A stretch of 64,000 bases of DNA from Spirochaetes bacterium GWE1_32_154 (GCA_001829315.1 MIAY01000025.1:928-64927), one strand, 5' to 3'; numbered from the stretch's first letter, positions 7,151-44,216 are shown. Numbers and translations are program-made. Notes: generated by a model from the sequence alone, not told the origin.

Positions 7151-7179
7151 TTGACTTGTTATCTAAAAACAACTATCAT
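7151..7179 (+). promoter_or_regulatory. Promoter giving a leaderless mRNA (TPR-GGDEF gene)
   Basis: TTGACT (7151-7156), a 17-bp spacer and TATCAT (7174-7179). The next ATG starts at 7186, six nt after the -10 box, which is where transcription would begin. No Shine-Dalgarno lies in between. The same geometry occurs at four other genes in this window. Confidence 0.75.
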
Positions 7180-7185
7180 TATTAT

Positions 7186-10100
7186 ATGGAAACAGGTCAA
7201 TCGTATAAAGAAATTTTATTTAATTCAATTTTTTCTTTTATTAATAGTAAACAACAAAAAAAGATATATTTTATTAATGGTAATTATTCTATACAAAATT
7301 TCTTAGATACTAAAAAATTAGTAGCATCACATATTAAATTATATAATTGTGATACATTTTCAAAATATTCGGGTTGTTATGAACCCTTTTATTCAATAAT
7401 TGCTGACTGGTATAAAAAAGATACAGTAGCACATAAAAAAATAGTAAAAAAGATTTGTTATTCAATGCATTATTCAACAATAGTAAATCTTCTTGAGGGT
7501 AGAAAACAATCAAGAAGGGAACCTTTACTCATTGAAGAAGTTGAATTTGAAAGTGAGATGATGCTTAATCAGTTAGTTGAATTATTGAATTACAGTTTGA
7601 CTGATGATAATAATATTATTTATATAGGTAACGCACACAATTTACAGCCATCCTCAGTTAACCTCATTAAAAAAATGATTGAAAAGGTACATAAGAAACT
7701 GGCATTAGTTTTTGTTTATTCATTACCATCAAATGAGAAATTTGAAGCTCTTGATAACCTCATGTCGTATTCATATAATCTACGATATAATACAAAATGC
7801 AGTATTGAGATTATAAAAGTTGATTCATCTGATGAACCTGTTTCTAATCATGTTACAAAAGTATCAATCGGTGATTTAGATAAAATCTCTGATCAGGCAA
7901 TTTATTTACTTTCTTTTCCTGATGCTAAAAATGCATTAATTGAAAATTTAAGTGCAATTGAGAATGTAAATCAGCATAATGAATTTGATAGTGTAAAAAA
8001 AAGAACACTTTTTAAATTAGCTAAAGTTTCATGTTATAGTGGAAACTATCGTGAGGCACATCGATATGCCACTATTTTATTAAAAATGCTTGATGTGGAA
8101 ATTGATATTGATTATATTGCCCGATCGTATTTACTTCTCGGAATTTCAGAGTATTATAGTAATTCCCTTGAATCCGCGTTATATTATTCTATGCTTACTA
8201 TTAAAATAGTAGAGAAATCTCATTCTATCCGGTATAAACTTCTGGCTGATCTTATAATTTTTTATATAAAGACAAATCAGAATGATGTAACATTTTATTT
8301 GAAAATTAAAGAAGAATTACTTGATGCACATTGGGATAATGTAACTTCATTAATTTTAACATTCGGCGGATATTTGACGGCATTTTTAAGAAATCATATA
8401 TTAGAACCGAAGGTTATATTACAATTTTGTGAAGATGGAATTCAATTAGCGAAAAAGAATAAAAATATACACCGGTTATCAGCTTGTTATCATGCAACTG
8501 GTGTTATTCACTCAATTATTGGTAATTATGAAGAGACAACAATAAATTATAAAAAGTCAGAACGATTAAAAAAGAAAATCAAAAATCCTTATCAATTATC
8601 ACGAATTTATAATAGTATCGGTTACAATTATTATGTAAGTGGTGAATTTGCTAAAGCCTATAAGTATTATATTGATGCTACAACTCTACTTGTGAATTCA
8701 AAAAATTATTCAGAAATTTGCATTGCTCTTTATAATATGGCAAAGGTACATTTTATACTTTTAGATTATATCAATACCGTTATTCATCTTGAAGATATGA
8801 TTTATATTATGGATCTCTTGCAAATTGAAAATTTCGCCTTTCAACACAGGATAAATATTTATTCTTTTCTTGGTATCAGTCATTTTTATTCAGGTAATTA
8901 TTTAATTGCCTGGAATTATATGCATAAAATTACTCAGCTGTCAGACTTTGAAAGTCATCATCTGTCGAGTCCTGTATTCTGGTTATTTAAATATTGTTTA
9001 AGCAATAATGAGGTTGAATCTCAAACTTTTTTTGATAATGCAATTAAATTTGGTAATTCTGAAAGTAAACAGTTTATTCTGATAAGTTATTTATTATCAG
9101 GAGATCGTGAATTCAATGCTTTGAATAGTGAAAAGGCACTCGTTCAATGGCGAAAAGGGTATGAAGTTGCACAAAATAATACATTTTATTCATTATATTA
9201 TTCACTATTTAACAAAAGGTTAAATAATCAGTGTATTGATAGTGGCGTTCCTGTATTAAAAAAATATAATTTTGATATTAAAACAATAATAGAGTTTGTT
9301 CGCGAAGAACAAAATTTGAATGAATTACAAAAGAAAATCAATGAAATTGATTTTATCAGTAAATTTCAGAATATGATAATCTTAAACGAAAAAAGAAATG
9401 AATTAATCCTTGAATCAATACATCTGATTGAATATTCATTTTCCTATGATATTGTAATTTTAATTGATGGCGAAAAAAATATACATACAAGCCATGTTTC
9501 TGATGCAATCAGTATTAATCCCCGTGAAATATATCGTATTATTAATGACACATACAAAGTAACAACATTATTAAATGAAAAGGAAATAATAAAATGCGGG
9601 CTAACCGGGAAGTTCAAGTCGATTTTGTATGTTACACGTGAAGCTGATCAAATCAATAAAGATATGGATATCTCATTGATAATGATTTCTAAAGACTCAA
9701 AAGGTGTAATGAATGATGATGATCAAAGGGTACTGACAATTTTTCTTAATCAGTTTTCATCGGTGCTTGAATTGATTGCAGTTCGGGAAGCTTTGTTGAG
9801 AGCAGCACGAATCGATAAATTAACCGGGATAAATAATAGGATGGAAATGGAAAAATTAATGGATGCAGAGTATAAAAGAGTTCTTCGTTATCCAAAAAAT
9901 CCTCAGTCAATTTTTTCTCTATTATTTATCGATCTTGATAATTTCAAATTCTATAATGATACGTATGGTCATCATGTTGGTGATCTGATTCTTGTTGAGT
10001 ATGCGAAATTATTAAAAAAAGCGGTCAGGGAGATTGACTCGATTGCCCGGTTGGGAGGAGACGAGTTTGTTATTATGCTTCCCGAAACTTTAAAACAAAG

Positions 10101-10344
10101 TGCGGTTAGAGTTGCTGAAAGAATATTTGAATTATTGGCAAGCTGTAACTATTTTTTACCTGAAATAGAGACTATTTTAGGCTTTTTACCTGAAATTCCT
10201 GCAAGTAACCTCATTTCCTGTTCTATAGGAATAACAGATGTAATACCCGTAAAAAATAAGACGGTAAGTGATTTCTTAATAATAGCCGATAAGGCATTAT
10301 ATGAAGCGAAAAGTAAAGGAAAGCGTGGCTATACTGTTTTTTAA
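7186..10344 (+). CDS. TPR protein with C-terminal GGDEF diguanylate cyclase
   Basis: About 1052 residues from ATG 7186 (METGQSYKE). The frame is open back to 7108, but that ATG sits in the hydA terminator. Residues ~1-250 resemble a degenerate ATPase region of the large cyclase/MalT type: IIYIGNAHNLQPSSVNLI aligns with the Walker B area, but no GxxxxGK Walker A is seen. Then come many TPR-like helices (~270-750), a GAF-like stretch (~760-880) and a GGDEF domain. The active site RLGGDEF (near residue 957) is intact and is preceded by RxxD (REID) at I-site distance, so it should make c-di-GMP with product inhibition. No membrane segments. It is 11 bp upstream of a receiver-PilZ gene and likely co-transcribed. 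Confidence 0.85.
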   Translation: METGQSYKEILFNSIFSFINSKQQKKIYFINGNYSIQNFLDTKKLVASHIKLYNCDTFSKYSGCYEPFYSIIADWYKKDTVAHKKIVKKICYSMHYSTIVNLLEGRKQSRREPLLIEEVEFESEMMLNQLVELLNYSLTDDNNIIYIGNAHNLQPSSVNLIKKMIEKVHKKLALVFVYSLPSNEKFEALDNLMSYSYNLRYNTKCSIEIIKVDSSDEPVSNHVTKVSIGDLDKISDQAIYLLSFPDAKNALIENLSAIENVNQHNEFDSVKKRTLFKLAKVSCYSGNYREAHRYATILLKMLDVEIDIDYIARSYLLLGISEYYSNSLESALYYSMLTIKIVEKSHSIRYKLLADLIIFYIKTNQNDVTFYLKIKEELLDAHWDNVTSLILTFGGYLTAFLRNHILEPKVILQFCEDGIQLAKKNKNIHRLSACYHATGVIHSIIGNYEETTINYKKSERLKKKIKNPYQLSRIYNSIGYNYYVSGEFAKAYKYYIDATTLLVNSKNYSEICIALYNMAKVHFILLDYINTVIHLEDMIYIMDLLQIENFAFQHRINIYSFLGISHFYSGNYLIAWNYMHKITQLSDFESHHLSSPVFWLFKYCLSNNEVESQTFFDNAIKFGNSESKQFILISYLLSGDREFNALNSEKALVQWRKGYEVAQNNTFYSLYYSLFNKRLNNQCIDSGVPVLKKYNFDIKTIIEFVREEQNLNELQKKINEIDFISKFQNMIILNEKRNELILESIHLIEYSFSYDIVILIDGEKNIHTSHVSDAISINPREIYRIINDTYKVTTLLNEKEIIKCGLTGKFKSILYVTREADQINKDMDISLIMISKDSKGVMNDDDQRVLTIFLNQFSSVLELIAVREALLRAARIDKLTGINNRMEMEKLMDAEYKRVLRYPKNPQSIFSLLFIDLDNFKFYNDTYGHHVGDLILVEYAKLLKKAVREIDSIARLGGDEFVIMLPETLKQSAVRVAERIFELLASCNYFLPEIETILGFLPEIPASNLISCSIGITDVIPVKNKTVSDFLIIADKALYEAKSKGKRGYTVF

Positions 10345-10355
10345 ATGGGGGAATA

Positions 10356-12170
10356 ATGACGAATTTATCAGTAAAGAAAATATTAGTTATAGATGATGAA
10401 GAAGCTCTACGATCAAATATTAAGAAGTTGCTCGTTATAATGGGTTTTGCAGTAGATTCAGCGGAAAATGGTGAAGAAGGGTATGAATTAATACATAACA
10501 ATTCGTATGATTTAGTTATTTGCGATGTGAAAATGCCTGTAATGGATGGGAAGGAACTTCTTAAAAAAGTGAGAGCGAATGAAAGTAAAAAATTTGTTCA
10601 ATTTATTTTTTTAACAAGTAATATTGATTTGGATGAAATCAGATCGGGTATGTTACTTGGTGCTGATGATTATGTAACCAAACCGTTTGATAATAAAGAT
10701 TTGCTTTTAACAATCAAAAAAAGATTTGAAAGGGCAGGTGATTTTAACACGTTTTATAAAGAAAAATTCGAAAAACAGCTTAAATATCTGGAAAATATTG
10801 CATATACCAATGTATCAACAAAACTACCCAATGAGATTGTATTAAATCAGCATATTGATCTTATGAAACAAAATAAAACAAGTTTTGCTGTATTTTATTT
10901 AGAAATTGAAGGACTTGATGAAATAATATCGTTTTTATCTAAAGGTAGTTATAACAATGTAGTAGATGAAATTATAAAAAATATAAAGGCTGTTTTAACT
11001 CCGGACGAAGAGCTTTATTTTCTTCATGATTCATATTTTTGTATTGTATTAAAGTCAGGGTGTATAACTGAGGGTGGCGAGTTTCTACAAAGTAAAATAG
11101 ATTTTTATAAAAGCGGAATAAATCATATTGTTAATTCGGGTGGTGTAGAATTTACTTTTCATACCTCAGGCGGTATATTTTTGTATAATGAGTCTATTTC
11201 ATTTGATTCAGAGGATATAATAAGAAATGCCAGAATTGCAATGATGTTCTCGAAAAAAACCGGTGGTGATTGTTTTACAACATATTCAGAATTTGTTAAA
11301 GAACGGTATAATAAAGTTTCAATTGATAGTATAAAGAAAAAACTATCACTTCAAAAAAGTGATTTAACGGCTGAGAATTATACTGAAGATAATTTTGAGA
11401 TAAAAGTTTTTTTTCTATATCCTCAATCAATCATACAAACTTTATTGATAAAGGAAATAATCAGAAATGAGTATTCTGCATATATATTAAATGATCATAA
11501 AACAGCGGTTTCGATTTTACAAAAATATCCTAATTCAATTTTATTTATTAACATTGATGCTATTATGAGTGAATCGGGTTGGGAAGAATATATTACAGAA
11601 ATCAAGAAAAATCCTGAATTAAGCACCGTTAGAATAGGTGTTCTTACTCACAAAGATAATGAAGCAAGTGCTGAGAAGTTTTTAATGCAAATTATGATTG
11701 AATCGGGTTATATTAAATTGAAAATTGGTTTCGAAGAGAGTCTAAAAGTAATATTGGCAGTTTTAGAAGCAAATGAGGCGAGAGGAAAACGGAAATTCAT
11801 AAGAGTTTGTGTTGATCAACGACAACAGACATACGCCGAAATAAAATTTAATTCGATTTATTATAAAGCAAAAATCAAAGATATAAGCTCCGTGGCATTA
11901 ACATTATATTTTGAAGATAATCAAATAGTTCCTGATAGCAATGCTTTTGAATCGATGATTTTATTATTAGCAGGAATCCATATTAGAATTAAAGGAAAAC
12001 TGGCAGGAACACGGATTGGTAATGCTGATGATAAACTTTTTGTTATAACATATACGGCAACTGATGAGGAAATAGAAAAAATAAGAAATTATATATATAG
12101 AAGTCGCCAGGAAATCATTGATATTGATGTGAAAAACTTTTTATCACCACCTGAACCTTTAGTCGGGTAA
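10356..12170 (+). CDS. Response regulator with degenerate GGDEF and C-terminal PilZ domain
   Basis: A 604-residue cytoplasmic protein. The N-terminal receiver (residues 5-125) has the acidic pocket D13-D14, phosphoacceptor D57 (CDVKMPVMDG), T/S switch region and K in VTKPFD. Residues ~135-340 look like a GGDEF fold without the GGDEF signature, so catalytically dead. Residues ~350-475 resemble a second, degenerate receiver. The C-terminal ~125 residues begin with RKFIR (RxxxR) followed by DISSVAL, the two c-di-GMP-contacting motifs of PilZ domains (Ala in place of the usual Gly). GGGGG precedes ATG 10356. Together with the upstream cyclase it suggests a local c-di-GMP signalling pair responding to a kinase. 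Confidence 0.85.
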   Translation: MTNLSVKKILVIDDEEALRSNIKKLLVIMGFAVDSAENGEEGYELIHNNSYDLVICDVKMPVMDGKELLKKVRANESKKFVQFIFLTSNIDLDEIRSGMLLGADDYVTKPFDNKDLLLTIKKRFERAGDFNTFYKEKFEKQLKYLENIAYTNVSTKLPNEIVLNQHIDLMKQNKTSFAVFYLEIEGLDEIISFLSKGSYNNVVDEIIKNIKAVLTPDEELYFLHDSYFCIVLKSGCITEGGEFLQSKIDFYKSGINHIVNSGGVEFTFHTSGGIFLYNESISFDSEDIIRNARIAMMFSKKTGGDCFTTYSEFVKERYNKVSIDSIKKKLSLQKSDLTAENYTEDNFEIKVFFLYPQSIIQTLLIKEIIRNEYSAYILNDHKTAVSILQKYPNSILFINIDAIMSESGWEEYITEIKKNPELSTVRIGVLTHKDNEASAEKFLMQIMIESGYIKLKIGFEESLKVILAVLEANEARGKRKFIRVCVDQRQQTYAEIKFNSIYYKAKIKDISSVALTLYFEDNQIVPDSNAFESMILLLAGIHIRIKGKLAGTRIGNADDKLFVITYTATDEEIEKIRNYIYRSRQEIIDIDVKNFLSPPEPLVG

Positions 12171-12192
12171 TATTTAAGGGCTTTGTGAAGTG

Positions 12193-12624
12193 TTATTTGA
12201 TAACAGATTGAAATTTATTCCGGTAAAACTCACTTAATTCTCCGGCCCGTTCGAGTCTTGCGCGTATGGTTTTTGCCAGTTCCTGATTATCAAATGGTTT
12301 TGTCACATAGTCATCAGCACCAAGAATCATAGCTTTTCGTATATCATTTAATTCAATGGTACTTGTAAGAAAAATAAATTGAATGTGTTTTTTCATTTCA
12401 TTATTTCTGACTTTTAATAAAAGATTATATCCGTCCATTACCGGCATTTTGATATCACTAATAACCAGGTCGTATTCATTTTCCACAATTTTTGTATATG
12501 CTTCTTCACCATTTGGCGCCTCATCAGGTATGAAACCAAGGATTTTTACTAACCGGGCAATATTTTTTCTTAATTCATCTTCATCTTCTACAATAAGTAT
12601 TTTTTTATACATTATGTTTATCAT
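12193..12624 (-). CDS. Single-domain response regulator (CheY-like)
   Basis: A 143-residue receiver with no output domain; acidic pocket E13-D14, phosphoacceptor D57 in SDIKMPVMDG, and the conserved Lys in VTKPFD. It overlaps the end of the upstream histidine-kinase gene by 20 bp in another frame. The start at 12624 (MINIM) is preferred because AAAGGAG lies seven nt upstream; the in-frame ATG at 12612 is the alternative. It is a close paralogue, by eye more than half identical, of the receiver domain of the convergent gene ending at 12170, including the shared tail LERAG. Probably receives phosphate from the kinase upstream. Confidence 0.92.
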   Translation of the reverse strand: MINIMYKKILIVEDEDELRKNIARLVKILGFIPDEAPNGEEAYTKIVENEYDLVISDIKMPVMDGYNLLLKVRNNEMKKHIQFIFLTSTIELNDIRKAMILGADDYVTKPFDNQELAKTIRARLERAGELSEFYRNKFQSVIK

Positions 12625-14626
12625 CGTTTAGCTCCTTTTGTTGTTTTTCAGGAATCGGAAATTCTAAAATAAATCTTGTAAAAACATCAGGCTGACTTTC
12701 TACAGAAATTTTTCCATTATTACTTTTTACGATAGTCTCACTAACCGGTAAACCCAAACCTGTACCTTTTATTTTAGTATGATCTAATGAAGACGCACCT
12801 TTGGTCGTAAAAAACGGAAGAAAGATTTTTTTTATATTTTCCGGCGGGATGCCGCATCCGTTATCTTCAACATACACTTTCACCGCGTTATCTGATTTAA
12901 AAATCGAAATAGTGATCTCAGGTTTGGTATGATTACTCAATGCGTGTTTTGCGTTAATAAGCAGATTGAGAAAAACCTGGTGAAGTTGATTACGGTTAAT
13001 AAAGAGTGGCGGGACATCAGAGTATTTTTTATGAATTACTATATTTTCACTTTTTAATTGAGGTTGAATGACTTTGATGACAGAATCGATAATTTCAGCT
13101 ATTTGGCAAAAATTTTTATTGCTATCATTGGGTCTTGCAATAGCCATCAAACTTTTTGCTATTTCTGCTCCTCGTGTTGTGTTAGTATCGATTTCCTGCA
13201 AAGAGTTAATTAATGATTCCGGTACATCATCAGCATATTCCATTATCATAAGCTGGACTGTAGATTTAATAACAGCGAGTACATTATTAAATTCATGAGC
13301 AACTCCCGTTGCAAGTTGACCCACTGCAACAGCTTTTTCTGTTTCAGCGCAGTTTCGTTCAATTTTCAATAAAGTATTATTTTTGATATTGTATTGTGTA
13401 ACATCGATCATGATTATGAGGATTCCTTCCGGAACGGCATTTTCATCATAAAATAAAGATTGATATACTAAAAAATCTTTATTTTCACCGTTAAGCATAG
13501 TAAGACTCATTTCAAAATAACAGGACTTGCCTTTTACTATAAGAATGTTATCGTATTGTTTAAAAATACCGGATATTTTCTGTGTATTAAAAACCGGTAG
13601 AGATGTTATATTGAGTCCGATAATTTCTTCTATTTTTTTGCCGGCTATCACTGTCGCGAATTCATCATTTCCACCCAGAATATCGTTATGTAAGTTTTTA
13701 AAGAAAACCGGAGCCGGTATAGTATCAATAAGTGTCGATAAAAACGCTACCGTTTTTCTCAAATAATCAAAAGAAATTTTTCTGCCCAGTGAATTACCAA
13801 TTATTTCAGACGCAATCCGGAGAAGCTCCAAATCAAGTGGTTTACAATCAACCTGAAAAAAAACAAAGTCGATCCCGATTAAACCCTTTAATTCTTTATC
13901 AATAAAAATTGGTAGTGCTATAAGTGATTGGATATTTTGTGATTGAAGTATGTGTTTTTCCTGTACTGCATCTTCGGGTAAATCGGCTAAACTGGAAATA
14001 AAAATAGGTTTATTAGATTTTAAATTATTTACCCACCATTGGGCATCTGTTAATGGAAAGTTTTGAAGCATGCTGATCAGGGCAATGTCAGGGGTAACAC
14101 ACCATTCATGAGTGTTACTCATTGTGGTATTCGTTTTATCCATTTGAAATAAATAAACCCGATCTCCGCCGGTTAATCTGCCGATTTGTTCAAGAGCGTA
14201 ATTAATATTTGTATCAAAATTATCGATTGAATTAAATGCTGTTGATATTGAAAATATGGTTTTTTCATATTTTACTTTTTCTGCTAATTGTGTTGATGCG
14301 ATAAGAATATCAGTTTGATCGATAATCTCATAGATTATGTAAGTTATTGAATCTATTTTAAGACTTTTTGTTGTGATAACAACGGGAATAATTGTATTCG
14401 CTGATATAGTAAGAGTTGTTTCAAACCTATTAATCTGATTATTTGAATCTGTTTTAATTATATCATTTTCATCGATTATATCAAAGATTGATAGATTTAA
14501 TATGTTTTTATTAAATAAATTATTCGCTGCCCGATTAGTGAAAACTATGTTTTTTAAATTTGAATCAATAACTAAAATAGGTTCGATAAGTTCAAAAAGG
14601 ACTTTTCCAAATAATTCTAACTGCAT
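12605..14626 (-). CDS. Cytoplasmic PAS-GAF-PAS sensor histidine kinase
   Basis: About 673 residues from ATG 14626 (MQLELFGKVLF). PAS-like region (~5-110), GAF domain (~130-285), second PAS (~300-420), then HisKA with the phosphoacceptor in VAHEFNNVLAV near residue 445 and HATPase with N-box NLLINAKHAL, G1 VEDNGCGIP and G2 GTGLGLP. No membrane segments, so it senses a cytoplasmic signal. A frame extends to a TTG at 14662, but that TTG is the first three bases of a consensus -35 box, so it is rejected. The gene overlaps the single-domain receiver and forms a two-component pair with it. Predicted to be leaderless. Confidence 0.9.
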   Translation of the reverse strand: MQLELFGKVLFELIEPILVIDSNLKNIVFTNRAANNLFNKNILNLSIFDIIDENDIIKTDSNNQINRFETTLTISANTIIPVVITTKSLKIDSITYIIYEIIDQTDILIASTQLAEKVKYEKTIFSISTAFNSIDNFDTNINYALEQIGRLTGGDRVYLFQMDKTNTTMSNTHEWCVTPDIALISMLQNFPLTDAQWWVNNLKSNKPIFISSLADLPEDAVQEKHILQSQNIQSLIALPIFIDKELKGLIGIDFVFFQVDCKPLDLELLRIASEIIGNSLGRKISFDYLRKTVAFLSTLIDTIPAPVFFKNLHNDILGGNDEFATVIAGKKIEEIIGLNITSLPVFNTQKISGIFKQYDNILIVKGKSCYFEMSLTMLNGENKDFLVYQSLFYDENAVPEGILIIMIDVTQYNIKNNTLLKIERNCAETEKAVAVGQLATGVAHEFNNVLAVIKSTVQLMIMEYADDVPESLINSLQEIDTNTTRGAEIAKSLMAIARPNDSNKNFCQIAEIIDSVIKVIQPQLKSENIVIHKKYSDVPPLFINRNQLHQVFLNLLINAKHALSNHTKPEITISIFKSDNAVKVYVEDNGCGIPPENIKKIFLPFFTTKGASSLDHTKIKGTGLGLPVSETIVKSNNGKISVESQPDVFTRFILEFPIPEKQQKELNDDKHNV

Positions 14627-14632
14627 ACATGA

Positions 14633-14662
14633 ATTATAGCTTGAAATAGAGTTATTTGTCAA
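14633..14662 (-). promoter_or_regulatory. Consensus promoter giving a leaderless kinase mRNA
   Basis: On the minus strand: TTGACA (14662-14657), an 18-bp spacer and TATAAT (14638-14633), both perfect consensus. Six nt separate the -10 box from ATG 14626, so the transcript should begin at or within a base of the start codon. Confidence 0.85.
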
Positions 14663-14696
14663 TTATAATATCAAAAGCCAGTCAATATAATTAATT

Positions 14697-14725
14697 TTGA
14701 CAAATAATTATATCTTAAGTATACT
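14697..14725 (+). promoter_or_regulatory. Orphan promoter with leaderless geometry
   Basis: On the plus strand: TTGACA (14697-14702), 17-bp spacer, TATACT (14720-14725), then six A residues and ATG at 14732. The frame stops after four codons (MFKI). No gene follows on this strand before 15646; a long hairpin and a dispersed repeat lie directly downstream. It may drive a small RNA or be the remnant of a lost leaderless gene. Confidence 0.65.
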
Positions 14726-14748
14726 AAAAAAATGTTTAAAATATGAAT

Positions 14749-14793
14749 AGCCGTACAATTTTCCTTGAATGTACAACTATAAATTGTACGGCT
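14749..14793. other. Perfect 13-bp inverted repeat downstream of the orphan promoter
   Basis: AGCCGTACAATTT and its exact reverse complement AAATTGTACGGCT flank a 19-bp loop. The stem is followed directly by the composite dispersed repeat. It has no T run, so it is not a classical terminator. It might be the body of a small structured RNA made from the promoter at 14697. Confidence 0.6.
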
Positions 14794-14952
14794 GGCTCTT
14801 GCAAAATCAAGACGGAAATTTAGATTACTGAATGTTCCCGCTTGATGAAAAAAAGAATACTTTTTTTATGCATCCGCCTTATGCGATTTAATCGCATAAG
14901 ATGTAATCTCTTTCAAAAATTCGAGATAAAAAGGGTATTTTGCAAGAGGCTC
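14794..14952 (+). repeat. Dispersed hairpin repeat, composite copy B
   Basis: A long form of the dispersed repeat: left arm GGCTCTTGCAAAATCAAG, an inner A/T hairpin (GAAAAAAAG ... CTTTTTTTATGC), a second hairpin TTATGCGATTTAATCGCATAA and the standard half TTCGAGATAAAAAGGGTATTTTGCAAGAGGCTC. It fills the space between the divergent-looking elements and the stop of the DTW gene. Confidence 0.8.
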
Positions 14953-15578
14953 TATAATAATGAATTTTTATCATTTCCACCCCAGAACTGACGTTGTTGA
15001 CTAATTAATCTATCAAAAATAGACATGAGATTTTGATAGTTTGCAGATTTATTGGCTAAGTTGTTTTCTTTTAAGGATGAAAGAAGATAATAGACACATT
15101 CTATTGTTGATAGATAATTTTCTTTCGGTTGTTTTTTGAAAAAGTATTTGGAAGTATATTTTTGCTCAAATGAAATGTGTGGTATTTGCATCAGATTACT
15201 ACTTTCTCTAAGCATAACTCTTGCATGCCACCAGGTGCCGTCAAGAATAAAAATCAGTAATTTTTTATTTTCTAAAGAGTTATAAAAAGTTTTATCCTCA
15301 ATATTTAACGCTTTATCAGATGGGTATAATAAAACAGGGTAAAATGTTTTGTCATTAATTAATTCATTAACTCTTTTGTTATTTGTAAAATCAATTCCTA
15401 TTATTAACTCTGAATCATTAATAGACAGATGAGTCAGTCTTCCTGTACCCGTCCTTTGATTCTTAGCTTCCATAGGGTGAATCAGAATAACAATTTTAAC
15501 ATTAGTATCGATCGGGATAATGTCATTGCAAAAACAATTTGTCTGTGAAAATAAACATTTATAACATTTCATTGCCAT
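14952..15578 (-). CDS. DTW-domain tRNA-uridine aminocarboxypropyltransferase
   Basis: A 208-residue DTW/TDD superfamily protein. Such enzymes (E. coli TapT) transfer the aminocarboxypropyl group of SAM to uridine in tRNA (acp3U). Visible features: N-terminal zinc-type cysteines (CYKCLFSQTNCFC), HPMEAKNQRTGTGRL matching the conserved HPxExxRxxNTxRL motif, and DGTWWHARVML, the DxTW signature. Length is normal. Start ATG 15578 (MAMKCYKC) has no ribosome-binding site and lies six nt after a -10 box, so the mRNA is predicted leaderless; the second Met two codons on is an alternative. The stop abuts a dispersed repeat. Confidence 0.88.
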   Translation of the reverse strand: MAMKCYKCLFSQTNCFCNDIIPIDTNVKIVILIHPMEAKNQRTGTGRLTHLSINDSELIIGIDFTNNKRVNELINDKTFYPVLLYPSDKALNIEDKTFYNSLENKKLLIFILDGTWWHARVMLRESSNLMQIPHISFEQKYTSKYFFKKQPKENYLSTIECVYYLLSSLKENNLANKSANYQNLMSIFDRLISQQRQFWGGNDKNSLL

Positions 15579-15584
15579 GAGATG

Positions 15585-15613
15585 TTTATAGTAACAATTG
15601 CATAAATTGTCAA
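15585..15613 (-). promoter_or_regulatory. Promoter giving a leaderless DTW-gene mRNA
   Basis: On the minus strand: TTGACA (15613-15608), 17-bp spacer, TATAAA (15590-15585), then six nt to ATG 15578. Same geometry as the promoters at 7151, 14662 and 42619. Confidence 0.85.
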
Positions 15614-15645
15614 TATATATTCCTGAGCTAAATGTTTCTCAGAAT

Positions 15646-15855
15646 ATGCATAAAAAAAGGGTTGTTAAAAAGTTATCTTATGACTTTTATTGTGTGTTGT
15701 ATATAGTTGTATTTTTTTCTGCTATTTTACCAATTATTGCAATTCCGCCTGTACTGTTTATTGTTTCTGTGGTAGTATCTATTGTATACATGTGCACCTC
15801 TTTGGTGATGATTTGTATTGTTATAAATCGGTATGTATCAATAATTTACATATGA
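15646..15855 (+). CDS. Possible small two-helix membrane protein
   Basis: A 69-residue frame: a basic N-terminus (MHKKRVVKK) followed by two long hydrophobic stretches (about residues 14-34 and 36-60) with a Pro-Pro turn between them. This is the look of a small inner-membrane protein, not of random AT-rich sequence, but no strong ribosome-binding site is seen and an overlapping frame is also open. The stop codon abuts a dispersed repeat, as at other gene ends here. The frame extends 5' to a TTG at 15598, less likely because it overlaps the divergent promoter. Function unknown. Confidence 0.4.
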   Translation: MHKKRVVKKLSYDFYCVLYIVVFFSAILPIIAIPPVLFIVSVVVSIVYMCTSLVMICIVINRYVSIIYI

Positions 15856-15903
15856 GCTTCATGCAAAAATCCCTTTATTTATCTCGAATTTTTGCAAGAG
15901 GTT
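15854..15903 (-). repeat. Dispersed hairpin repeat, copy C
   Basis: Reverse-oriented copy: GAGCTTCATGCAAAAAT, core with TTTATCTCGAA, then TTTTTGCAAGAGGT. It lies between the possible small membrane protein and hisD in a 417-bp space that otherwise holds only the hisD leader. Confidence 0.8.
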
Positions 15904-15995
15904 TGGGTATTTCCATCTATTTAATTTTAGTAAGCCCTGAGAATTGTTTGCCTAATTAAACAATTCCGGGTATATATATTTCAAGTGAGGTTTGT

Positions 15996-18043: not shown

Positions 18044-18048
18044 GATTA

Positions 18049-18082
18049 AAGTAAAGTGTTTTATAAAAGAACCACTTTACTT
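18049..18082 (+). terminator. Hairpin after recO
   Basis: Stem AAGTAAAGTG / CACTTTACTT with a 14-bp loop six bases after the recO stop, followed by a T-rich stretch. It partly overlaps the -35 box of the next promoter, so it may be a terminator, a regulatory hairpin or both. Confidence 0.55.
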
Positions 18083-32992: not shown

Positions 32993-33003
32993 ATAGTATC
33001 CTG

Positions 33004-34005: not shown

Positions 34006-34035
34006 TTTTATACTCCTTTTTTTTAAAAAAAAATA

Positions 34036-35244: not shown

Positions 35245-35393
35245 AGGGCTATTCCTTTTATCTTATAATCAGTTAAAATTATTGGATAGAGAGCTTTTTG
35301 CAAAATTTTCTATATAAACTGAAATAATTATAATATTAAATTTTAATTAATGCAAAAATTACTGATGAATTATATCGTTTTGTACGAATCATA

Positions 35394-37694: not shown

Positions 37695-37705
37695 ACCAAT
37701 CCCAT

Positions 37706-38797
37706 TTATTCTGAAAAAGAAACAGTTCCCCGGTATACTTTTGCTTTTTTTACCGGAAATAAAATATCACGTTGATTCGGTTTTGCATTTATTTCGCCGA
37801 ATACTCCCATATATGAAAAACCTTGTGTAAGACTACTTAAAAGAGCCGTTTTTGTATGATCGGTATGCTCAAGAATATTTGCGATAATATTTGTTGTCTC
37901 ATACGCACCTGCTGAGTAATGATCAAGTTCCTTATTAAAAGTTGCTGTATATGCATTTTTCAATTGAGTTGCATAGATAAAATTTGAATTGTAAATATAA
38001 GGAGCTCCGATATATTTGGTTTTTGAAATATAAGACGATTTGTATTCGGGGCTTGCAATATTACTAGCACCGAATAGTGCACCTTGATAATTATTTCGCT
38101 CAAGCGTTTCATAAATTTTTTTAATATGCGGATTTAATCCTATTGCAAAGATTCCATCAGTAGATAGTAAATCTTGCACTATATCATCAAAGACAATTGT
38201 ATTGGTTTCATAGTAATAGAATTTAACTGTGTTGCCTTTTTTCTCAAATGCTTCTTTTAATGGAAGGGATAACGATTTTCCGTACTGATCATTTAATGAA
38301 ATAATGCCGGGATTTTCTATACCAAGATCATCACAGTGAGATAGTATAGAGGATATTTCATCATCATTATTTGGCGCAAATCTGTAACAATAGGCATTTT
38401 TTGAGGTAAAATCTTCAGCTCCGACAGCAAGACCGAGAAGAGGTACCTGACTATTTAATGCCGGTTGTGCAAGCGGGAAAGAAAGATAACTGAATGCTGA
38501 GATGTATACAACAGGGGTATAAGCATTTTCTATCTCATCAAATAATTTCACGAGAGTTGAAGTCTCACTTTTATTGTCTTTCACGACAAGCTCAAGGGGA
38601 CTACCGTCTATACCGCCTTTTTTATTAATTTCCTTAATTGCAAGGGTGATCCCATTTTTTATTGCATTACCAATTTCCTCGCCACTTCCCGATAAAGGAA
38701 TAATTGCTGCAATAACAATGTTTTTTCTATTACCGTTACATCCTGAGAAAAACAAAGTGATAATTATCAGTAAACCTGAAAAAAATATTCGTAGCAT
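37706..38797 (-). CDS. Periplasmic binding lipoprotein (branched amino-acid/amide type)
   Basis: About 363 residues from ATG 38797 (MLRIFFSGLLIIITLFFSGC), with lipobox FSGC. The frame extends to 38878, but GAGGT six nt before 38797 and the lipoprotein signal fix the start. The mature protein is a type I periplasmic binding fold: IAAIIPLSGSGEEIGNAI and NGITLAIKEINKKGGIDG are classic LivJ/Peripla_BP_6 features. No ABC permease genes are nearby; the gene pairs with a hybrid kinase, so it is more likely a sensor input than a transporter part. TTGTAT-17-TATACT upstream is a likely promoter, divergent from nrdJ. Confidence 0.9.
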   Translation of the reverse strand: MLRIFFSGLLIIITLFFSGCNGNRKNIVIAAIIPLSGSGEEIGNAIKNGITLAIKEINKKGGIDGSPLELVVKDNKSETSTLVKLFDEIENAYTPVVYISAFSYLSFPLAQPALNSQVPLLGLAVGAEDFTSKNAYCYRFAPNNDDEISSILSHCDDLGIENPGIISLNDQYGKSLSLPLKEAFEKKGNTVKFYYYETNTIVFDDIVQDLLSTDGIFAIGLNPHIKKIYETLERNNYQGALFGASNIASPEYKSSYISKTKYIGAPYIYNSNFIYATQLKNAYTATFNKELDHYSAGAYETTNIIANILEHTDHTKTALLSSLTQGFSYMGVFGEINAKPNQRDILFPVKKAKVYRGTVSFSE

Positions 38798-38908
38798 TTT
38801 AATACCTCTGAAATAGGTTTGTTCTAAAGTATAGTAAATGGATATGAAAAATACAAGTGCTTTGAAATTTATTTTCATGAATTACCATACAATTTCATGA
38901 ATAATAAT

Positions 38909-38937
38909 TTGACTTGTGCTACATATAGTGGTATAAG
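38909..38937 (+). promoter_or_regulatory. Promoter of nrdJ
   Basis: TTGACT (38909-38914), 17-bp spacer, TATAAG (38932-38937). The leader is short (~27 nt) and holds GGAGAG; there is no room for a cobalamin riboswitch. Confidence 0.7.
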
Positions 38938-38970
38938 CTATCTTTTAACGCTATATATATGGAGAGTGCA

Positions 38971-41322
38971 ATGCATCGAGTAATTAAAAGAAACGGTAGA
39001 AAGGAAGATTTTAATGTATCAAAGATTATTCGGGCAATTGAAAAAGCAATGCTTGAGTCGAAAGAAGGGCTTGATGCTCAACTTTGCAGTTTAATAGCAT
39101 CACAAGTTGATAAAAGACTTACCGGATCCGATGAAGTCACAATTGAACAAATTCAGGATACTATTGAAGATTTATTAATGGAATGCCCGCGAAAAGAACT
39201 TGCAAAAATATACATTTTATATAGATACGAAAGAAGTAAGGCACGGGTTAAGGAAAATAAACCCGGTTATAAACTTCTTGATGATAATTTTATAAGTAAA
39301 TACAAACATATTGCCAGTCCTTTAAAACAATATGGAAATTTTGTGTATTATAGAACGTATTCCCGATGGCTTGAAGATGAAAATAGAAGGGAATACTGGT
39401 ATGAAACGGTGAGAAGAGCCGTAGAGTACAACTGTAGTTTAGTGCCGACTTCAAAAGAGGAAGCAGAAAAATTATTTCATAATGTTTTCAGTCTCAAACA
39501 GTTTTTATCAGGCAGAACATTCTGGGTTGGAAATACGAAAGTCACTGATAATTATCCCATAGCAAATTACAATTGTGCGTTTGAAATAATCAATAATTTT
39601 GAAGCATTTAAAGACCTTTTCTACTTACTGATGGTTGGTGCCGGTGTCGGTGTGCGGATTTTAAAATCGGATGTTGAACAGCTACCGTCACTTCGAACTG
39701 ATTTTGAAATTATTCATAAATTCTATGCACCTGTCAAAAAAGATGAAAGAGAAGATAACACCGGTATTAAATTCTCACACGGGAATTCTGCTGAGATCAT
39801 TGTCGGCGACAGTAAAGAAGGGTGGGCAGATTCATTGGAATATTTTTTCCGTCTTATTTATTCAAATGGATATCATAAGGTAAAAACTATTATAATCAAT
39901 TACAATAATGTTCGTGAAAAAGGTGAGAAGTTAAAAACATTTGGTGGAACTTCAAGCGGTCATGAAAGTATAAAAAATATGTTTACGAAGATAGAAAAAG
40001 TGATATTAAAACGAGGTATTGAATCGAATAGCGGTAAAGTTCGTTTACGACCTATTGATTGCCTTGATATCGCAAATATTATTGGTGAGAATGTTGTTGT
40101 CGGCGGAGTACGAAGAACAGCAGAAATCGCCTTACTTGATCCCGATGATAAAGAAGCAATTGAAGCTAAAAACAACCTTTATAAAAATATCGATGGTCAA
40201 TGGATTGTAAATGATGAGTTATTTCACAGACAAATGAGTAATAATTCGATTTATTATACCGAAAAACCTGATCGTGATAAATTACACTGGCAAATTGAAC
40301 AAATGAGATATTCAGGGGAACCTGCCTGGGTTAATGCCGGTGCCGGAGCAAAAAGAAGACCAAATATGAACGGCGTAAACCCTTGTGCCGAGATTCTTTT
40401 GGATGACAAAGGTTTATGTAATCTCACAACAGTTAATGTATTTTCATTTGTAAATTCCGATGGAACTCTCGATAGAGAAGGTTTGCTTGAAGCACAACGA
40501 TTATCAGCACGAGCCGGATATCGAATGACGACAATCGAACTGGAATTACCGCGATGGAATGCCACGCAAAAACGTGACAGGCTTCTCGGATGTTCACTTA
40601 CCGGCTGGCAGGATATGATCAATGCAACCGGTTTTTCTAAAGAGCAGGAGAAAGAGCTTTTAAGACAATTACGAACAGTTGCCAAAGAGGAATCAGCAAA
40701 ATACGCTGCTGTACTTGGCACTACCCAACCGTTACTTGTTACAACAATAAAACCTGAGGGGACACTTTCACAATTACCAACTGTATCTAACGGAGTTCAT
40801 TTTTCACATTCACCATTTTATATACGAAGAGTACGAATCAATGCCCACGACCCGTTAGTCCGGGTTTGTGAAGAACTCGGGTATCCGATTTTTCCTGAAG
40901 TCGGTCAAACAGAATCAAGTTGCACTACAAAAGTTATTGAGTTTCCAATTAAGTCGCCTGTTGGTAAAACAAAATCTGAGGTCAGTGCTTTAGAGCAATT
41001 AGAAATTTATAAATTATTCATGGAAGAATATGTTGATCACAATTGTTCAATAACGGTTCATGTTAGAAATAATGAATGGGATGCAGTTGAAGAATGGATA
41101 TGGAATAATTGGGATGATGTGGTTGCTGTTTCTTTTATATCGCTGGATGACAGTTTCTATAAACTTTTACCGTATGAAACAATTGATGAAAATGAATATA
41201 ATAAGCGTGTCACTGCAATGAAACCGTTTACACCTCATTTACTGGCAAAGTATGAACAAGCTGAGCTTGCTCTTGATGCAGGTAATGACGGATGTGATAA
41301 AGGTGTGTGCCCGATTCGATAG
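38971..41322 (+). CDS. nrdJ: Adenosylcobalamin-dependent (class II) ribonucleotide reductase
   Basis: About 783 residues. N-terminal ATP cone (HRVIKRNGRKEDFNVSKIIRAI), then the 10-stranded barrel with NCAFEII, GVNPCAEILL and GLCNLTTVNV (active-site Cys residues), TIKPEGTLSQLP and a C-terminal redox pair (CDKGVCPIR). Features such as SNGVHFSHSPFYIRRVRI fit the triphosphate reductase (RTPR) branch plus an ATP cone. It makes deoxynucleotides independently of oxygen using B12. The first ATG (38959) overlaps the Shine-Dalgarno GGAGAG; ATG 38971 is preferred. Confidence 0.92.
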   Translation: MHRVIKRNGRKEDFNVSKIIRAIEKAMLESKEGLDAQLCSLIASQVDKRLTGSDEVTIEQIQDTIEDLLMECPRKELAKIYILYRYERSKARVKENKPGYKLLDDNFISKYKHIASPLKQYGNFVYYRTYSRWLEDENRREYWYETVRRAVEYNCSLVPTSKEEAEKLFHNVFSLKQFLSGRTFWVGNTKVTDNYPIANYNCAFEIINNFEAFKDLFYLLMVGAGVGVRILKSDVEQLPSLRTDFEIIHKFYAPVKKDEREDNTGIKFSHGNSAEIIVGDSKEGWADSLEYFFRLIYSNGYHKVKTIIINYNNVREKGEKLKTFGGTSSGHESIKNMFTKIEKVILKRGIESNSGKVRLRPIDCLDIANIIGENVVVGGVRRTAEIALLDPDDKEAIEAKNNLYKNIDGQWIVNDELFHRQMSNNSIYYTEKPDRDKLHWQIEQMRYSGEPAWVNAGAGAKRRPNMNGVNPCAEILLDDKGLCNLTTVNVFSFVNSDGTLDREGLLEAQRLSARAGYRMTTIELELPRWNATQKRDRLLGCSLTGWQDMINATGFSKEQEKELLRQLRTVAKEESAKYAAVLGTTQPLLVTTIKPEGTLSQLPTVSNGVHFSHSPFYIRRVRINAHDPLVRVCEELGYPIFPEVGQTESSCTTKVIEFPIKSPVGKTKSEVSALEQLEIYKLFMEEYVDHNCSITVHVRNNEWDAVEEWIWNNWDDVVAVSFISLDDSFYKLLPYETIDENEYNKRVTAMKPFTPHLLAKYEQAELALDAGNDGCDKGVCPIR

Positions 41323-41457
41323 GGAATTGTATTTGATTAGGATTGAACCACAGAACGATGTTGATTGCAAGAATTTTCACGTGGTTCGCAGAGAAGGTTA
41401 GTTTATGAAATTGGATATGATAGCATTACAGTTTAATACAGACATTCGATTTCTGTA

Positions 41458-41478
41458 AACTCACTAACTCTGCGTGAA
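41458..41478. repeat. Direct repeat flanking the Rpn gene, left copy
   Basis: A 21-bp sequence ending in TCTGCGTGAA that recurs at 42559-42579 with two mismatches, in the same orientation, on the other side of the Rpn nuclease gene. The 190-bp space around it also holds partial inverted matches (GAACCAC/GTGGTTC and CGCAGAG). Confidence 0.65.
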
Positions 41479-41513
41479 GCATTTCTATATTGACATATTC
41501 AGGGTATCGAAAT

Positions 41514-42464
41514 TTAGAGTTTTTCAATATCACTCATTGAAAGTCCGGTAGCTTTGGCAATAATGTCTACAGTTACACCAAGTTTCTTGAAGTTTTTAGC
41601 ATCTTCAAGTTTACCTTCTAGCTTACCTTCAAGTTTACCTTCTAACTTACCTTCAAGTTTACCTTCTAACTTACCTTCAAGTTTACCTTCTAACTTACCT
41701 TCAAGTTTACCTTCTAACTTACCTTCAAGTTTACCTTTTTCAATGCCTTCCTGCATCGCTTCTTCAAGACCGGTATTGTAATCAAGTTGCCATATCTCGC
41801 GACGTAGAGCTTTATCCCGAAGCCTTTCATCATTGTTAAATTTTTTGAAAAGTGAATGAGCCTTTCTGATGTCAGGGTCATTATTAAGTAGTAATGTCAT
41901 TTTGTCCTCCTCTTTACCTTCATATTTAAAAAAGGTAAGCCATTTATCAAGATGTGCTTCCACAAGTCCCGGTTGAATATATTTTTTCAGTTCTATAAAG
42001 TGCATTTCAAGATGATCGGTCAGTGCATATTCAGGATTGTCTTTTTCCATGAGCATAAAGCAACTGTGTATTTTTGCAGTGTCAGGAAACATTTTAAAGT
42101 TAACAAGATTAATGCATATCACGGGATGAAGAGTGGTATATGTTTCTTTTTGTTTAATTTGTGTTGCATACAGTCGTGCCCAATAGTACAAAGATCGTTG
42201 TGCAAAAGATTTTTCATCCCTCACTTGTATTTCTATGTCGTACAAGCGGTTGTTGTTATCAACAGCCTTGATGTCGAGTACCGTTTCTTTATCAAACCGG
42301 TATTTTTTTATGTTCACAGGGTTTTTGACTTTTGCAGAATGAATTGTTTTGAATTTTGAGTCTAAAAGAACGCCATTAATAAATGAAACAAGGAGATCCT
42401 CATTTTCTTCATTACCAAGAAGATACAGTATAAAAAGGTCATTGAGTGCCGTAATTGATTTCAT
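41514..42464 (-). CDS. Rpn-family PD-(D/E)XK nuclease/putative transposase with EGKL repeats
   Basis: About 316 residues from ATG 42464 (MKSITALNDLFILYLLG). The N-terminal ~200 residues match the Rpn/PDDEXK_2 family: a nuclease core with VLDIKAVDNNNRLYDIEIQVRD supplying the D...ExQ catalytic residues. Rpn proteins are recombination-promoting DNA nucleases spread by horizontal transfer. Residues ~235-285 are about ten EGKL units from a 24-bp tandem repeat. The frame reaches a TTG at 42500, but that base triplet is the -35 box. No ribosome-binding site lies before ATG 42464. Imperfect direct repeats flank the gene. Confidence 0.87.
   Translation of the reverse strand: MKSITALNDLFILYLLGNEENEDLLVSFINGVLLDSKFKTIHSAKVKNPVNIKKYRFDKETVLDIKAVDNNNRLYDIEIQVRDEKSFAQRSLYYWARLYATQIKQKETYTTLHPVICINLVNFKMFPDTAKIHSCFMLMEKDNPEYALTDHLEMHFIELKKYIQPGLVEAHLDKWLTFFKYEGKEEDKMTLLLNNDPDIRKAHSLFKKFNNDERLRDKALRREIWQLDYNTGLEEAMQEGIEKGKLEGKLEGKLEGKLEGKLEGKLEGKLEGKLEGKLEGKLEGKLEDAKNFKKLGVTVDIIAKATGLSMSDIEKL
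41605..41737. repeat. 24-bp tandem repeat inside the Rpn gene
   Basis: Alternating 12-bp blocks CAAGTTTACCTT and CTAACTTACCTT make a 24-bp unit repeated about 5.5 times, in frame, encoding (LEGK)n on the minus strand. One block carries G instead of A (GCTTACC). Copy number probably varies. Confidence 0.92.
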
Positions 42465-42471
42465 AAAGAAA

Positions 42472-42500
42472 ATAATACTGTAAAATGGAGATAAAGGCAA
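42472..42500 (-). promoter_or_regulatory. Promoter giving a leaderless Rpn mRNA
   Basis: On the minus strand: TTGCCT (42500-42495), 17-bp spacer, TATTAT (42477-42472), then seven nt to ATG 42464. The same leaderless geometry as elsewhere, with a weaker -35 box. Confidence 0.65.
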
Positions 42501-42558
42501 GATTATTTTTCTAATGGCCGGGATATTGAAAGGCTATTTTTAGTGGTTAAGTAATTCT

Positions 42559-42579
42559 AACTCACCAATTCTGCGTGAA
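42559..42579. repeat. Direct repeat flanking the Rpn gene, right copy
   Basis: Matches 41458-41478 at 19 of 21 positions in the same orientation. It lies just upstream of the NarX-like kinase promoter. Confidence 0.65.
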
Positions 42580-42618
42580 AAACTCTTGAAATATTGTTGA
42601 TTTTCTAAAATTGCTCTA

Positions 42619-42647
42619 TTGACTCGATTGATTTATATGTCTATACT
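42619..42647 (+). promoter_or_regulatory. Promoter giving a leaderless kinase mRNA
   Basis: TTGACT (42619-42624), 17-bp spacer, TATACT (42642-42647), then CTTATT (six nt) and ATG 42654. No Shine-Dalgarno is present. Confidence 0.85.
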
Positions 42648-42653
42648 CTTATT

Positions 42654-44216
42654 ATGAAACGAAGCCTGATTGCTGCTTTAGTAATTGTTTATTCACTGGC
42701 AACATTATTTTATTTTTTTTATGTTGAGCGCATTATATATAATGATTATCTCTTGCATGAAGAAGATACAATAGAGGCATATACCAGAAGTATTTCAAAT
42801 GTTCTCGCCGGACAGATTGATGATGTTATAAGTGATTTTAATTTTTTATCACAAACATATACTTCGGACACCGCAGTTGATATAGTAAATCAGCTTAATC
42901 CATTTCTATATGATGTATCATTAACTAATACTGAGCCCGTAGGTGAGGAAGATGTTTTTTTTCTTGGTGAATATAAGAATGCACGAATTTCAGCTTTTTT
43001 TAATGGTGAATATACCGGGTTACAATTAACAGCTGATACATCAGTTTCACCCGGGTATACATTTATCAGTGCATTTGTAAAACTGACTGAAACAGCAGGA
43101 TTTTACAGCAGTCTTACCGATACCGGTAGTTTTGAAAGAGTGGTGCTTGTTACAGATCGTGATGGCAGAATTCTTTACAACTCAAACGGGGTTGCGGACT
43201 TTTCAATGATTTCTGATGCTATTAAAAATGCAGTATTATCATACAAAGGTAATATTATTGAAATCTTAATTGCCGGTTCGCCATATTATTTGTCATCGGC
43301 ATTTGTCAGTCCAGGTGATTTGATTGTAATTGTATATTTACCGAAACATGTTTTAAATCGTCATATACATTCTTTTCTTTTCAAAATAACATCGGCAGTA
43401 TCTGTTTTTTTTCTGATCTTACTGATTATTTCGATACTATTTGTTATTAGATTTATAAAACCGGTTGAGTTGCTTACAAAACATTTGGAAAGTTTCAGTA
43501 AAGACGGGATTGCTTTAAAAATAACCGGAAATTTTAAAGGTAAGAATGCCGAAGCTGTATCTGCATTTAATAAAATGATTGATGAAAGAAGCAGTTTTGA
43601 AAAGGAAATACTTGAAGCTGCTGAATATGAACGGACTCGTATTGGTATAGAACTTCATGATGATATAGGGCAAATATTGACCGGGGCAAATTTTTATCTG
43701 ATGGATATACAGAGTAAGGATCATGTCATTACGAGCCGTGATATTGACGGTTTACATGAACTTATAAACCAGGCACTTCATAAAGTCCGAATAACCGCCC
43801 GGGGGCTTTACCCGGTTATTGTTAATGAAAACGGGCTTATCGGGCTTATCGAAAATTTTATTGATGGTTTCGGTATGCATTCGGGAATTGAATTTAATTT
43901 TGCCCATGGTGTTTCAGTGCCTGTTCGCGATGAATTTATACTGTTTAATATTTTTAGAATCATTCAGGAAGCTGTAACTAATGCTATTAAACATTCGGAA
44001 TGTACTTTGATTTCAATACGGCTTGATGCGGATGAGTCTGTCTTGAAAGTATCGATATGTGATAATGGTTTGGGTATCAATAATTTTACAGGTGACGGGA
44101 TTGGTTTACGGAGTATGAAGTATCGTGCCGGTCTTATGAATGCCATATTTTCAATAAGTGAGAATACACCGGGAACTTGCATTACATTGATTATAAGGAG
44201 AAATGAAAATGAGTAA
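42654..44216 (+). CDS. NarX/DegS-type membrane sensor histidine kinase
   Basis: A 520-residue kinase: membrane segment ~5-25, extracytoplasmic sensor ~26-240, second segment ~243-268, short linker and a HisKA_3 domain with phosphoacceptor His in RIGIELHDDIGQIL, then HATPase (IQEAVTNAIKHSE, CDNGLGI, GDGIGLRSMKYRA). It should phosphorylate the NarL-like regulator whose gene overlaps its end. Predicted leaderless from the promoter at 42619. Length is typical. The signal is unknown; the neighbours are secreted proteins, hinting at envelope sensing. Confidence 0.93.
   Translation: MKRSLIAALVIVYSLATLFYFFYVERIIYNDYLLHEEDTIEAYTRSISNVLAGQIDDVISDFNFLSQTYTSDTAVDIVNQLNPFLYDVSLTNTEPVGEEDVFFLGEYKNARISAFFNGEYTGLQLTADTSVSPGYTFISAFVKLTETAGFYSSLTDTGSFERVVLVTDRDGRILYNSNGVADFSMISDAIKNAVLSYKGNIIEILIAGSPYYLSSAFVSPGDLIVIVYLPKHVLNRHIHSFLFKITSAVSVFFLILLIISILFVIRFIKPVELLTKHLESFSKDGIALKITGNFKGKNAEAVSAFNKMIDERSSFEKEILEAAEYERTRIGIELHDDIGQILTGANFYLMDIQSKDHVITSRDIDGLHELINQALHKVRITARGLYPVIVNENGLIGLIENFIDGFGMHSGIEFNFAHGVSVPVRDEFILFNIFRIIQEAVTNAIKHSECTLISIRLDADESVLKVSICDNGLGINNFTGDGIGLRSMKYRAGLMNAIFSISENTPGTCITLIIRRNENE

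What the first reader, a model, noticed from the sequence alone, without database searches (positions are those of the whole stretch)
7151..42656. A recurring leaderless-gene architecture: consensus promoter with the -10 box 6-7 nt before ATG
Five genes have TTGAC-type -35 boxes, 17-18-bp spacers and -10 boxes ending six nt (seven for the Rpn gene) before an ATG, with no Shine-Dalgarno: TPR-GGDEF protein (ATG 7186), PAS kinase (14626), DTW enzyme (15578), Rpn nuclease (42464), NarX-like kinase (42654). A sixth site (14697) has the same spacing before a four-codon ORF. At 14662 and 42500 the longest ORF begins at a TTG that is the -35 box. Most other genes here have clear AGGAG sites, so the two classes coexist. 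Transcription normally begins about 7 nt after the -10 box, so the mRNA should start at the ATG. Many of the leaderless genes are signalling genes.
Basis: partly seen in the sequence, partly recalled or inferred. Interest (0 to 1): 0.72.

Follow-up and report, generated by a model that had tools for sequence, protein, structure and literature searches.

The report
Leaderless genes in a spirochaete genome
About one to two percent of this spirochaete's genes sit exactly six bases after a normal promoter, so their messages probably begin at the start codon; that is a known kind of gene, but the window's Rpn nuclease belongs to a toxin family in which this layout recurs across several spirochaete families, together with a strong internal start for the presumed antitoxin.

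Summary
All six sites are at the stated positions, and the 6-nt spacing is a real class. In 855 kb of the same genome, full promoters end 6 nt before a first-gene ATG 15 times, against 0-4 at neighbouring spacings and 2 (maximum 5) in shuffles. A second 740-kb sample gives 9, against about 2. The spike is absent at GTG and TTG starts. None of 23 such starts has a Shine-Dalgarno (SD) site. It needs a -35 box; -10-only boxes show no excess. The same spike appears over 41 Spirochaetota genomes. Leaderless transcription is therefore the best reading, but it is a known kind, already reported in spirochaetes. The signalling bias is not supported outside the window.

New here: the window's Rpn gene belongs to a supported clade of PDDEXK_2 nucleases. 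In that clade 25 of 30 sampled genes, from four spirochaete families, are leaderless, while other Rpn clades carry SD sites. Most clade members also have an internal AGGAGG-ATG at the position where E. coli Rpn starts its antitoxin. This suggests a leaderless toxin with an SD-led antitoxin. No 5' ends or proteins were measured.

The parts
7151..7188 (+). Leaderless promoter and start of the TPR-GGDEF gene: -35 TTGACT 7151-7156, -10 TATCAT 7174-7179, ATG 7186
   Evidence: GGDEF by Pfam
7089..7126 (+). Intrinsic terminator of the upstream operon (hairpin AAAGACAGCCTT..AAGGCTGTCTTTTTT); separates gene 7186-10344 from upstream transcription
   Evidence: read from sequence
14624..14662 (-). Leaderless promoter and start of the GAF-PAS histidine kinase: -35 TTGACA 14662-14657, -10 TATAAT 14638-14633, ATG 14626
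   Evidence: Pfam
15576..15613 (-). Leaderless promoter and start of the DTW-domain gene: -35 TTGACA 15613-15608, -10 TATAAA 15590-15585, ATG 15578
   Evidence: DTW by Pfam; start codon aligns with orthologues
42462..42500 (-). Leaderless promoter and start of the Rpn gene: -35 TTGCCT 42500-42495, -10 TATTAT 42477-42472, ATG 42464 (7-nt spacing)
41514..42464 (-). Rpn-family nuclease RpnL (PDDEXK_2, TIGR01784), 316 aa, D64, E78 and Q80 invariant in its clade
41514..41900 (-). Candidate RpnS (antitoxin) from internal ATG 41900, 128 aa, with AGGAGG at 41911-41906, 5 nt before it
41603..41737 (-). 12-bp tandem repeat, 11.2 copies, coding the four-residue repeat KLEG typical of RpnS regions
   Evidence: repeat described in PMC10327210
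42619..42656 (+). Leaderless promoter and start of the NarX-like (HisKA_3) kinase: -35 TTGACT 42619-42624, -10 TATACT 42642-42647, ATG 42654
   Evidence: Pfam
14697..14746 (+). Sixth site: -35 TTGACA 14697-14702, -10 TATACT 14720-14725, ATG 14732, four codons then TGA; diverges from the PAS-kinase promoter, with which it forms an imperfect inverted repeat

Best explanation
These are leaderless genes. A housekeeping (sigma-70 type) promoter with both a -35 and a -10 box lies so close to the gene that RNA polymerase, which starts about 7 nt after the -10 box, begins the message at or within one nucleotide of the A of the ATG. With no 5' UTR and no Shine-Dalgarno site, the ribosome must start on the 5'-terminal AUG. 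Shown here: the exact spacing, its statistical excess, its restriction to ATG and to boxes with a -35, the lack of SD sites, and its recurrence across the phylum. Inferred: the transcript 5' ends and translation of the leaderless message. In the Rpn gene the full-length nuclease is the leaderless product, and an internal AGGAGG-ATG probably makes the C-terminal antitoxin.
For: Spacing spike at d=6: 15 against 0-4 at neighbours and 2.0 in shuffles; second sample 9 against about 2. ATG only: GTG 0, TTG 0 at d=6 in the first sample, 0 and 1 in the second. No SD in 23 of 23. The excess exists only for -10 boxes with a -35: 19 at d=6 against 0-5 at the other spacings d=0-15; without a -35, 10 at d=6 against 4-23. 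Over 41 Spirochaetota genomes: d5 203, d6 466, d7 367, d8-12 mean 211, p about 1e-43, 37 of 41 genomes above background. FlaA in 41 of 41 and 0 of 14 controls supports the phylum. Precedent with mapped 5' ends in a spirochaete: 184 Leptospira genes with the TSS on the start codon (PMC5243855). Rpn clade.
Against: No transcript data for this organism. Short leaders of 1-5 nt cannot be told from none; rpoN has a second, stronger promoter 12 nt before its ATG. The leaderless state of single genes is not conserved: DTW orthologues in other genera have SD sites. Gene starts were called by a simple coding model.
Confidence: 0.85

Rival explanations
1. The promoters are real but the annotated ATGs are not the starts: transcription begins near this ATG and translation starts at a downstream in-frame codon with a leader.
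For: Gene starts were called from coding potential only; a few d=6 matches (for example near rpoN) have competing promoters or starts.
Against: The spike is locked to ATG and to exactly 6 nt, which a downstream start would not require. The NarX-like kinase starts with a membrane segment right at the ATG (read from sequence). The DTW start aligns with its orthologues' starts. The Rpn match begins within 8 residues of the ATG.
Confidence: 0.08
2. Chance: in a 32% GC genome TATNNT and ATG are common, and the reader picked matching cases.
For: Many pattern matches lie inside coding sequence, and a loosened pattern gives many hits.
Against: Neighbouring spacings and shuffled upstream regions give about 2 against 15, repeated in a second sample and in 41 genomes.
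Confidence: 0.04
3. Leaders are very short (1-5 nt) rather than absent, and translation uses an SD-independent route on short-leadered mRNA.
For: The 7-nt spacing is also in excess over the phylum (367 against 210 expected); TSS choice varies by 1-2 nt (general knowledge).
Against: The sharp peak at 6 and the need for ATG fit a 5'-terminal AUG best.
Confidence: 0.15

Closest known systems
TA-led (leaderless) bacterial genes of Zheng et al. 2011 (PMC3160421)
   Same: TANNNT with its first T about 12 bp upstream of the start codon, equal to d=6 here; Spirochaetes already listed (6 of 18 genomes, mean 3.9% of genes)
   Different: Here the -10 box almost always has a -35 partner; that study scored the -10-like signal only
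Leptospira interrogans leaderless transcripts by dRNA-seq (PMC5243855)
   Same: Same phylum; 430-450 genes with TSS within 10 nt of the start, 184 exactly on it
   Different: Experimental; that study found no clear -35/-10 motif, whereas the genome here shows one clearly
Deinococcus-Thermus -10-motif genes (PMC12340547)
   Same: -10 motif 6-7 bp before the ORF, SD-led genes alongside
   Different: There about one third of genes and mostly without a -35; here 1-2% of genes and the excess is confined to boxes with a -35
Rpn (RpnL/RpnS) gene-within-gene toxin-antitoxin systems (PMC10327210)
   Same: Same nuclease family; internal start with SD near codon 180-190; hypervariable four-residue repeat (KLEG) in the C-terminal part
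   Different: In this spirochaete clade the full-length gene itself has a leaderless start; I found no report of this
M. tuberculosis leaderless toxin-antitoxin transcripts (PMC8485053, PMC3898074)
   Same: Toxin-antitoxin genes are often leaderless
   Different: Unrelated families; here the leaderless product would be the toxin and the antitoxin would be SD-led from within the same gene

Membership tests
Leaderless bacterial genes (promoter -10 box adjacent to the ORF) | -10 box at a fixed 6-7 nt before the start codon, in excess of chance | tested here: met
Leaderless bacterial genes (promoter -10 box adjacent to the ORF) | No Shine-Dalgarno site | tested here: met
   0 of 23 with SD; controls 15 of 82 and 124 of 194
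Leaderless bacterial genes (promoter -10 box adjacent to the ORF) | Transcript 5' end at the start codon | not testable with these tools
   no RNA data for this organism; precedent in Leptospira
Deinococcus-type -10-only leaderless genes | No -35 box needed; excess seen for the -10 motif alone | tested here: not met
   without a -35, d=6 has 10 hits against 4-23 at the other spacings d=0-15
Rpn recombination-promoting nuclease family | PD-(D/E)XK Rpn domain | tested here: met
   PF12784 2.5e-50, TIGR01784 3.3e-55, D64, E78 and Q80 invariant
Rpn RpnL/RpnS toxin-antitoxin system | Internal translation start with its own ribosome binding site making the C-terminal part | tested here: met
   AGGAGG 5 nt before ATG at codon 189 in the window; 15 of 25 leaderless-clade genes against 3.1 expected under synonymous shuffling; 24 of 30 in the phylum search. 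Sequence evidence only
Rpn RpnL/RpnS toxin-antitoxin system | Hypervariable four-residue repeat in the C-terminal domain | tested here: met
   11.2 copies of 12 bp; the 91%-identical paralogue L304 has about two
Rpn RpnL/RpnS toxin-antitoxin system | Toxicity of RpnL and its neutralisation by RpnS; phage defence | not testable with these tools
   sequence alone cannot show it; no match in PADLOC-DB

The most novel reading that the evidence does not exclude
In a clade of spirochaete Rpn toxin-antitoxin genes the leaderless start is a conserved regulatory device: the nuclease (RpnL) is made only by leaderless initiation, while its antitoxin (RpnS) is made from a strong SD site inside the same gene, so any condition that shifts ribosomes from SD-led to leaderless initiation raises the toxin-to-antitoxin ratio and arms the system.
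Probability: 0.4. Interest if true: 0.72.

Novelty: new member of a known kind. Interest (0 to 1): 0.46.

Why it matters
It extends a sequence signature of leaderless genes, with full -35/-10 promoters, over a phylum where, of the papers I found, only Leptospira has mapped leaders, and it corrects gene starts (three genes here would be mis-started by longest-ORF calling). The Rpn case matters more: how Rpn toxins are released is named as an open question by their discoverers (PMC10327210), and a leaderless toxin with an SD-led antitoxin in one gene gives a simple mechanism that a reporter assay can test directly.

Tried and rejected
- Signalling bias of leaderless genes: not supported outside the window.
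- Clustering of such genes in this window: 4 of 29 leaderless calls fall in the window, which holds 33 of 799 first genes; nominal p 0.03 and post hoc, not claimed.
- Conservation of the leaderless state in DTW and rpoN orthologues: DTW orthologues have SD sites, rpoN is ambiguous.
- Naming the organism by a scan of GTDB contigs: the DTW query found nothing and the ribonucleotide reductase found mostly clostridial relatives; the phylum rests on FlaA.
- RNA families in the window: none.
- Leaderless Rpn outside this clade: none of eight plasmid-borne Rpn genes from four phyla, including two Leptospira ones, shows the arrangement clearly (in the Megaera gene a weak box fits at 7 nt).
- Reverse-pattern counts given by the search tool were not used as the null because they also destroy the ATG; neighbouring spacings were used instead.

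Full report
THE OBSERVATION. All six sites are present at the given coordinates, with the spacings stated. The Rpn gene has a weaker -35 (TTGCCT) and 7 nt; the DTW gene has TATAAA as its -10. At 14662 and 42500 the longest ORF indeed begins inside the -35 box, and at 7108 it begins inside the hairpin of an intrinsic terminator, so longest-ORF starts are wrong for these genes.

IS IT MORE THAN CHANCE. Whole-genome pattern matches by -10-to-ATG distance 3 to 9 are 5, 4, 7, 21, 12, 11, 6. Because many matches lie in coding DNA, I took 855 kb of the same genome (window included), predicted genes by a hexamer model, and scored -35/-10 pairs before ATGs of first genes. At 6 nt there are 15, at 0-5 and 7-15 nt between 0 and 4. 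Shuffled upstream regions that keep base context give a mean of 2.0 and a maximum of 5 in 40. A second sample of 740 kb, analysed with unchanged thresholds, gives 9 against about 2. The peak is absent for GTG and essentially absent for TTG. None of 23 such starts has an SD site, against 124 of 194 genes whose promoter lies 15-45 nt away; the stricter control (a -10-like box at 3-5 or 8-10 nt) is 15 of 82. The estimate is about 17-20 excess genes in 1300, or 1-2% of genes.

A -35 IS REQUIRED. For -10 boxes with a -35, d=6 has 19 against 0-5 at the other spacings from 0 to 15. For -10 boxes without one, d=6 has 10 against 4-23. These are ordinary sigma-70-type promoters placed on the start codon, not the -10-only type of Deinococcus (PMC12340547).

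ACROSS THE PHYLUM. All 41 relatives carry FlaA (PF04620), which rings in none of 14 control genomes; PF04620 is known to me as the spirochaete periplasmic flagellar sheath protein, so the phylum is taken as Spirochaetota. Summed over these genomes, d=5 has 203, d=6 has 466, d=7 has 367 and d=8-12 average 211; 37 of 41 genomes exceed their own background at 6 nt.

WHAT IS KNOWN. Zheng et al. 2011 described exactly this signal and list Spirochaetes (6 of 18 genomes, mean 3.9% of genes) (PMC3160421). Leptospira interrogans has 184 genes with the TSS on the start codon (PMC5243855). So the class is a new member of a known kind.

SIGNALLING. Leaderless genes found include rpoN, GGDEF, HDOD, hybrid kinases and HTH regulators, but also a galactokinase-like kinase, an aminotransferase, an ABC ATPase and a SpoU methylase. 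Domains of two-component and GGDEF type: 6 of 29 against 54 of 770 (p 0.017), but 3 of 25 outside the window. I do not support a signalling bias.

THE RPN LEAD. In a distant relative (G039), 16 of the 39 strict d=6 matches precede Rpn-type genes (my count from the listed places). I therefore examined PDDEXK_2 genes over the phylum. In the window's genome four Rpn genes of one type (window, L303, L304, L305) have the promoter at 6-7 nt and no SD in front of the chosen ATG, while of the other Rpn types examined there none has it and most have SD sites. A tree of 54 proteins puts all 25 leaderless genes into one clade of 30 (support 98/93), with one SD-led and four unclear members. The leaderless members span genomes of four families (f1, f3, f15, f11), and the label needs two changes on the tree when unclear rows are left out. 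Rows of the clade lie up to about 1.8 changes per site from the window's gene even among its nearest neighbours, so this is not recent copying alone, though within-genome copies and near relatives inflate the count. A phylum search of 296 genomes gave 30 best loci, one per genome: 23 leaderless, one with SD. Most of these are from a single genus, so they replicate the pattern within it rather than add independent origins; one new family (G202, f48) also fits, and family f32 (G065, G149) does not.

INTERNAL START. E. coli Rpn genes make a C-terminal antitoxin, RpnS, from an internal start with its own RBS (PMC10327210). The window gene has AGGAGG-5-ATG at codon 189 (ATG 41900) and 11 copies of a 12-bp repeat coding KLEG, both hallmarks of that system. 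An internal ATG with a strong SD occurs in 15 of 25 leaderless genes (3.1 expected when synonymous codons are shuffled) and in 9 of 20 SD-led ones (0.9 expected), and in 24 of 30 loci of the phylum search. The internal start is thus general in these Rpn genes; the leaderless outer start is particular to one clade.

HOW IT LIKELY WORKS. Shown: promoter placement, spacing, lack of SD, clade distribution, internal SD-ATG. Inferred: the transcript starts on the AUG; ribosomes start there without SD; in the Rpn gene this makes the nuclease weakly or conditionally, while the internal SD-led start makes the antitoxin in excess. Leaderless initiation is known (general knowledge) to resist conditions that impair SD-led initiation, which would tilt the balance towards the toxin. 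This last step is a hypothesis.

LIMITS. No RNA or protein data; gene starts from a simple model; promoter weights taken from general sigma-70 consensus, not trained here; genome samples, not the complete genome.

Noticed in passing
window 14794-14966 and 54971-55095: Two copies of a dispersed intergenic repeat with about 40 copies in the genome, ends GAGGCTCTTGCAAAAATC, most with 4-bp direct duplications at the borders: a MITE-like element; the first copy abuts the stop codon of the DTW gene.
   Followed up: partly
window 41603-41737: Rpn gene with 11 copies of a 12-bp repeat (KLEG); its 91%-identical paralogue (G000 C43, L304) has only about two, so repeat number varies between copies in one genome.
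   Followed up: yes
window 14640-14719: The PAS-kinase promoter and the sixth site form a 30-nt imperfect inverted repeat (77%), two nearly identical promoters back to back; the rightward one runs into a 13-bp perfect hairpin (14749-14793) and the repeat element. It could make a small RNA or be inert.
   Followed up: partly
window 38959-41322: Ribonucleotide reductase (RNR_Alpha, ATP cone, B12-type insertion domain) whose nearest relatives found are clostridial (67% identity), a possible horizontal acquisition in a spirochaete.
   Followed up: no
G032 C1, for example 547121-547159: Six or more near-identical leaderless-type sites TTGACATTACTGCCACTCCTATGCTATACTCTACTCATG in another spirochaete with no PDDEXK_2 match: another multicopy gene or element with this layout.
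   Followed up: no
L211 and L212 (G039): The Rpn-type promoter also stands before ORFs of only 12 and 25 codons, perhaps decayed Rpn genes.
   Followed up: no
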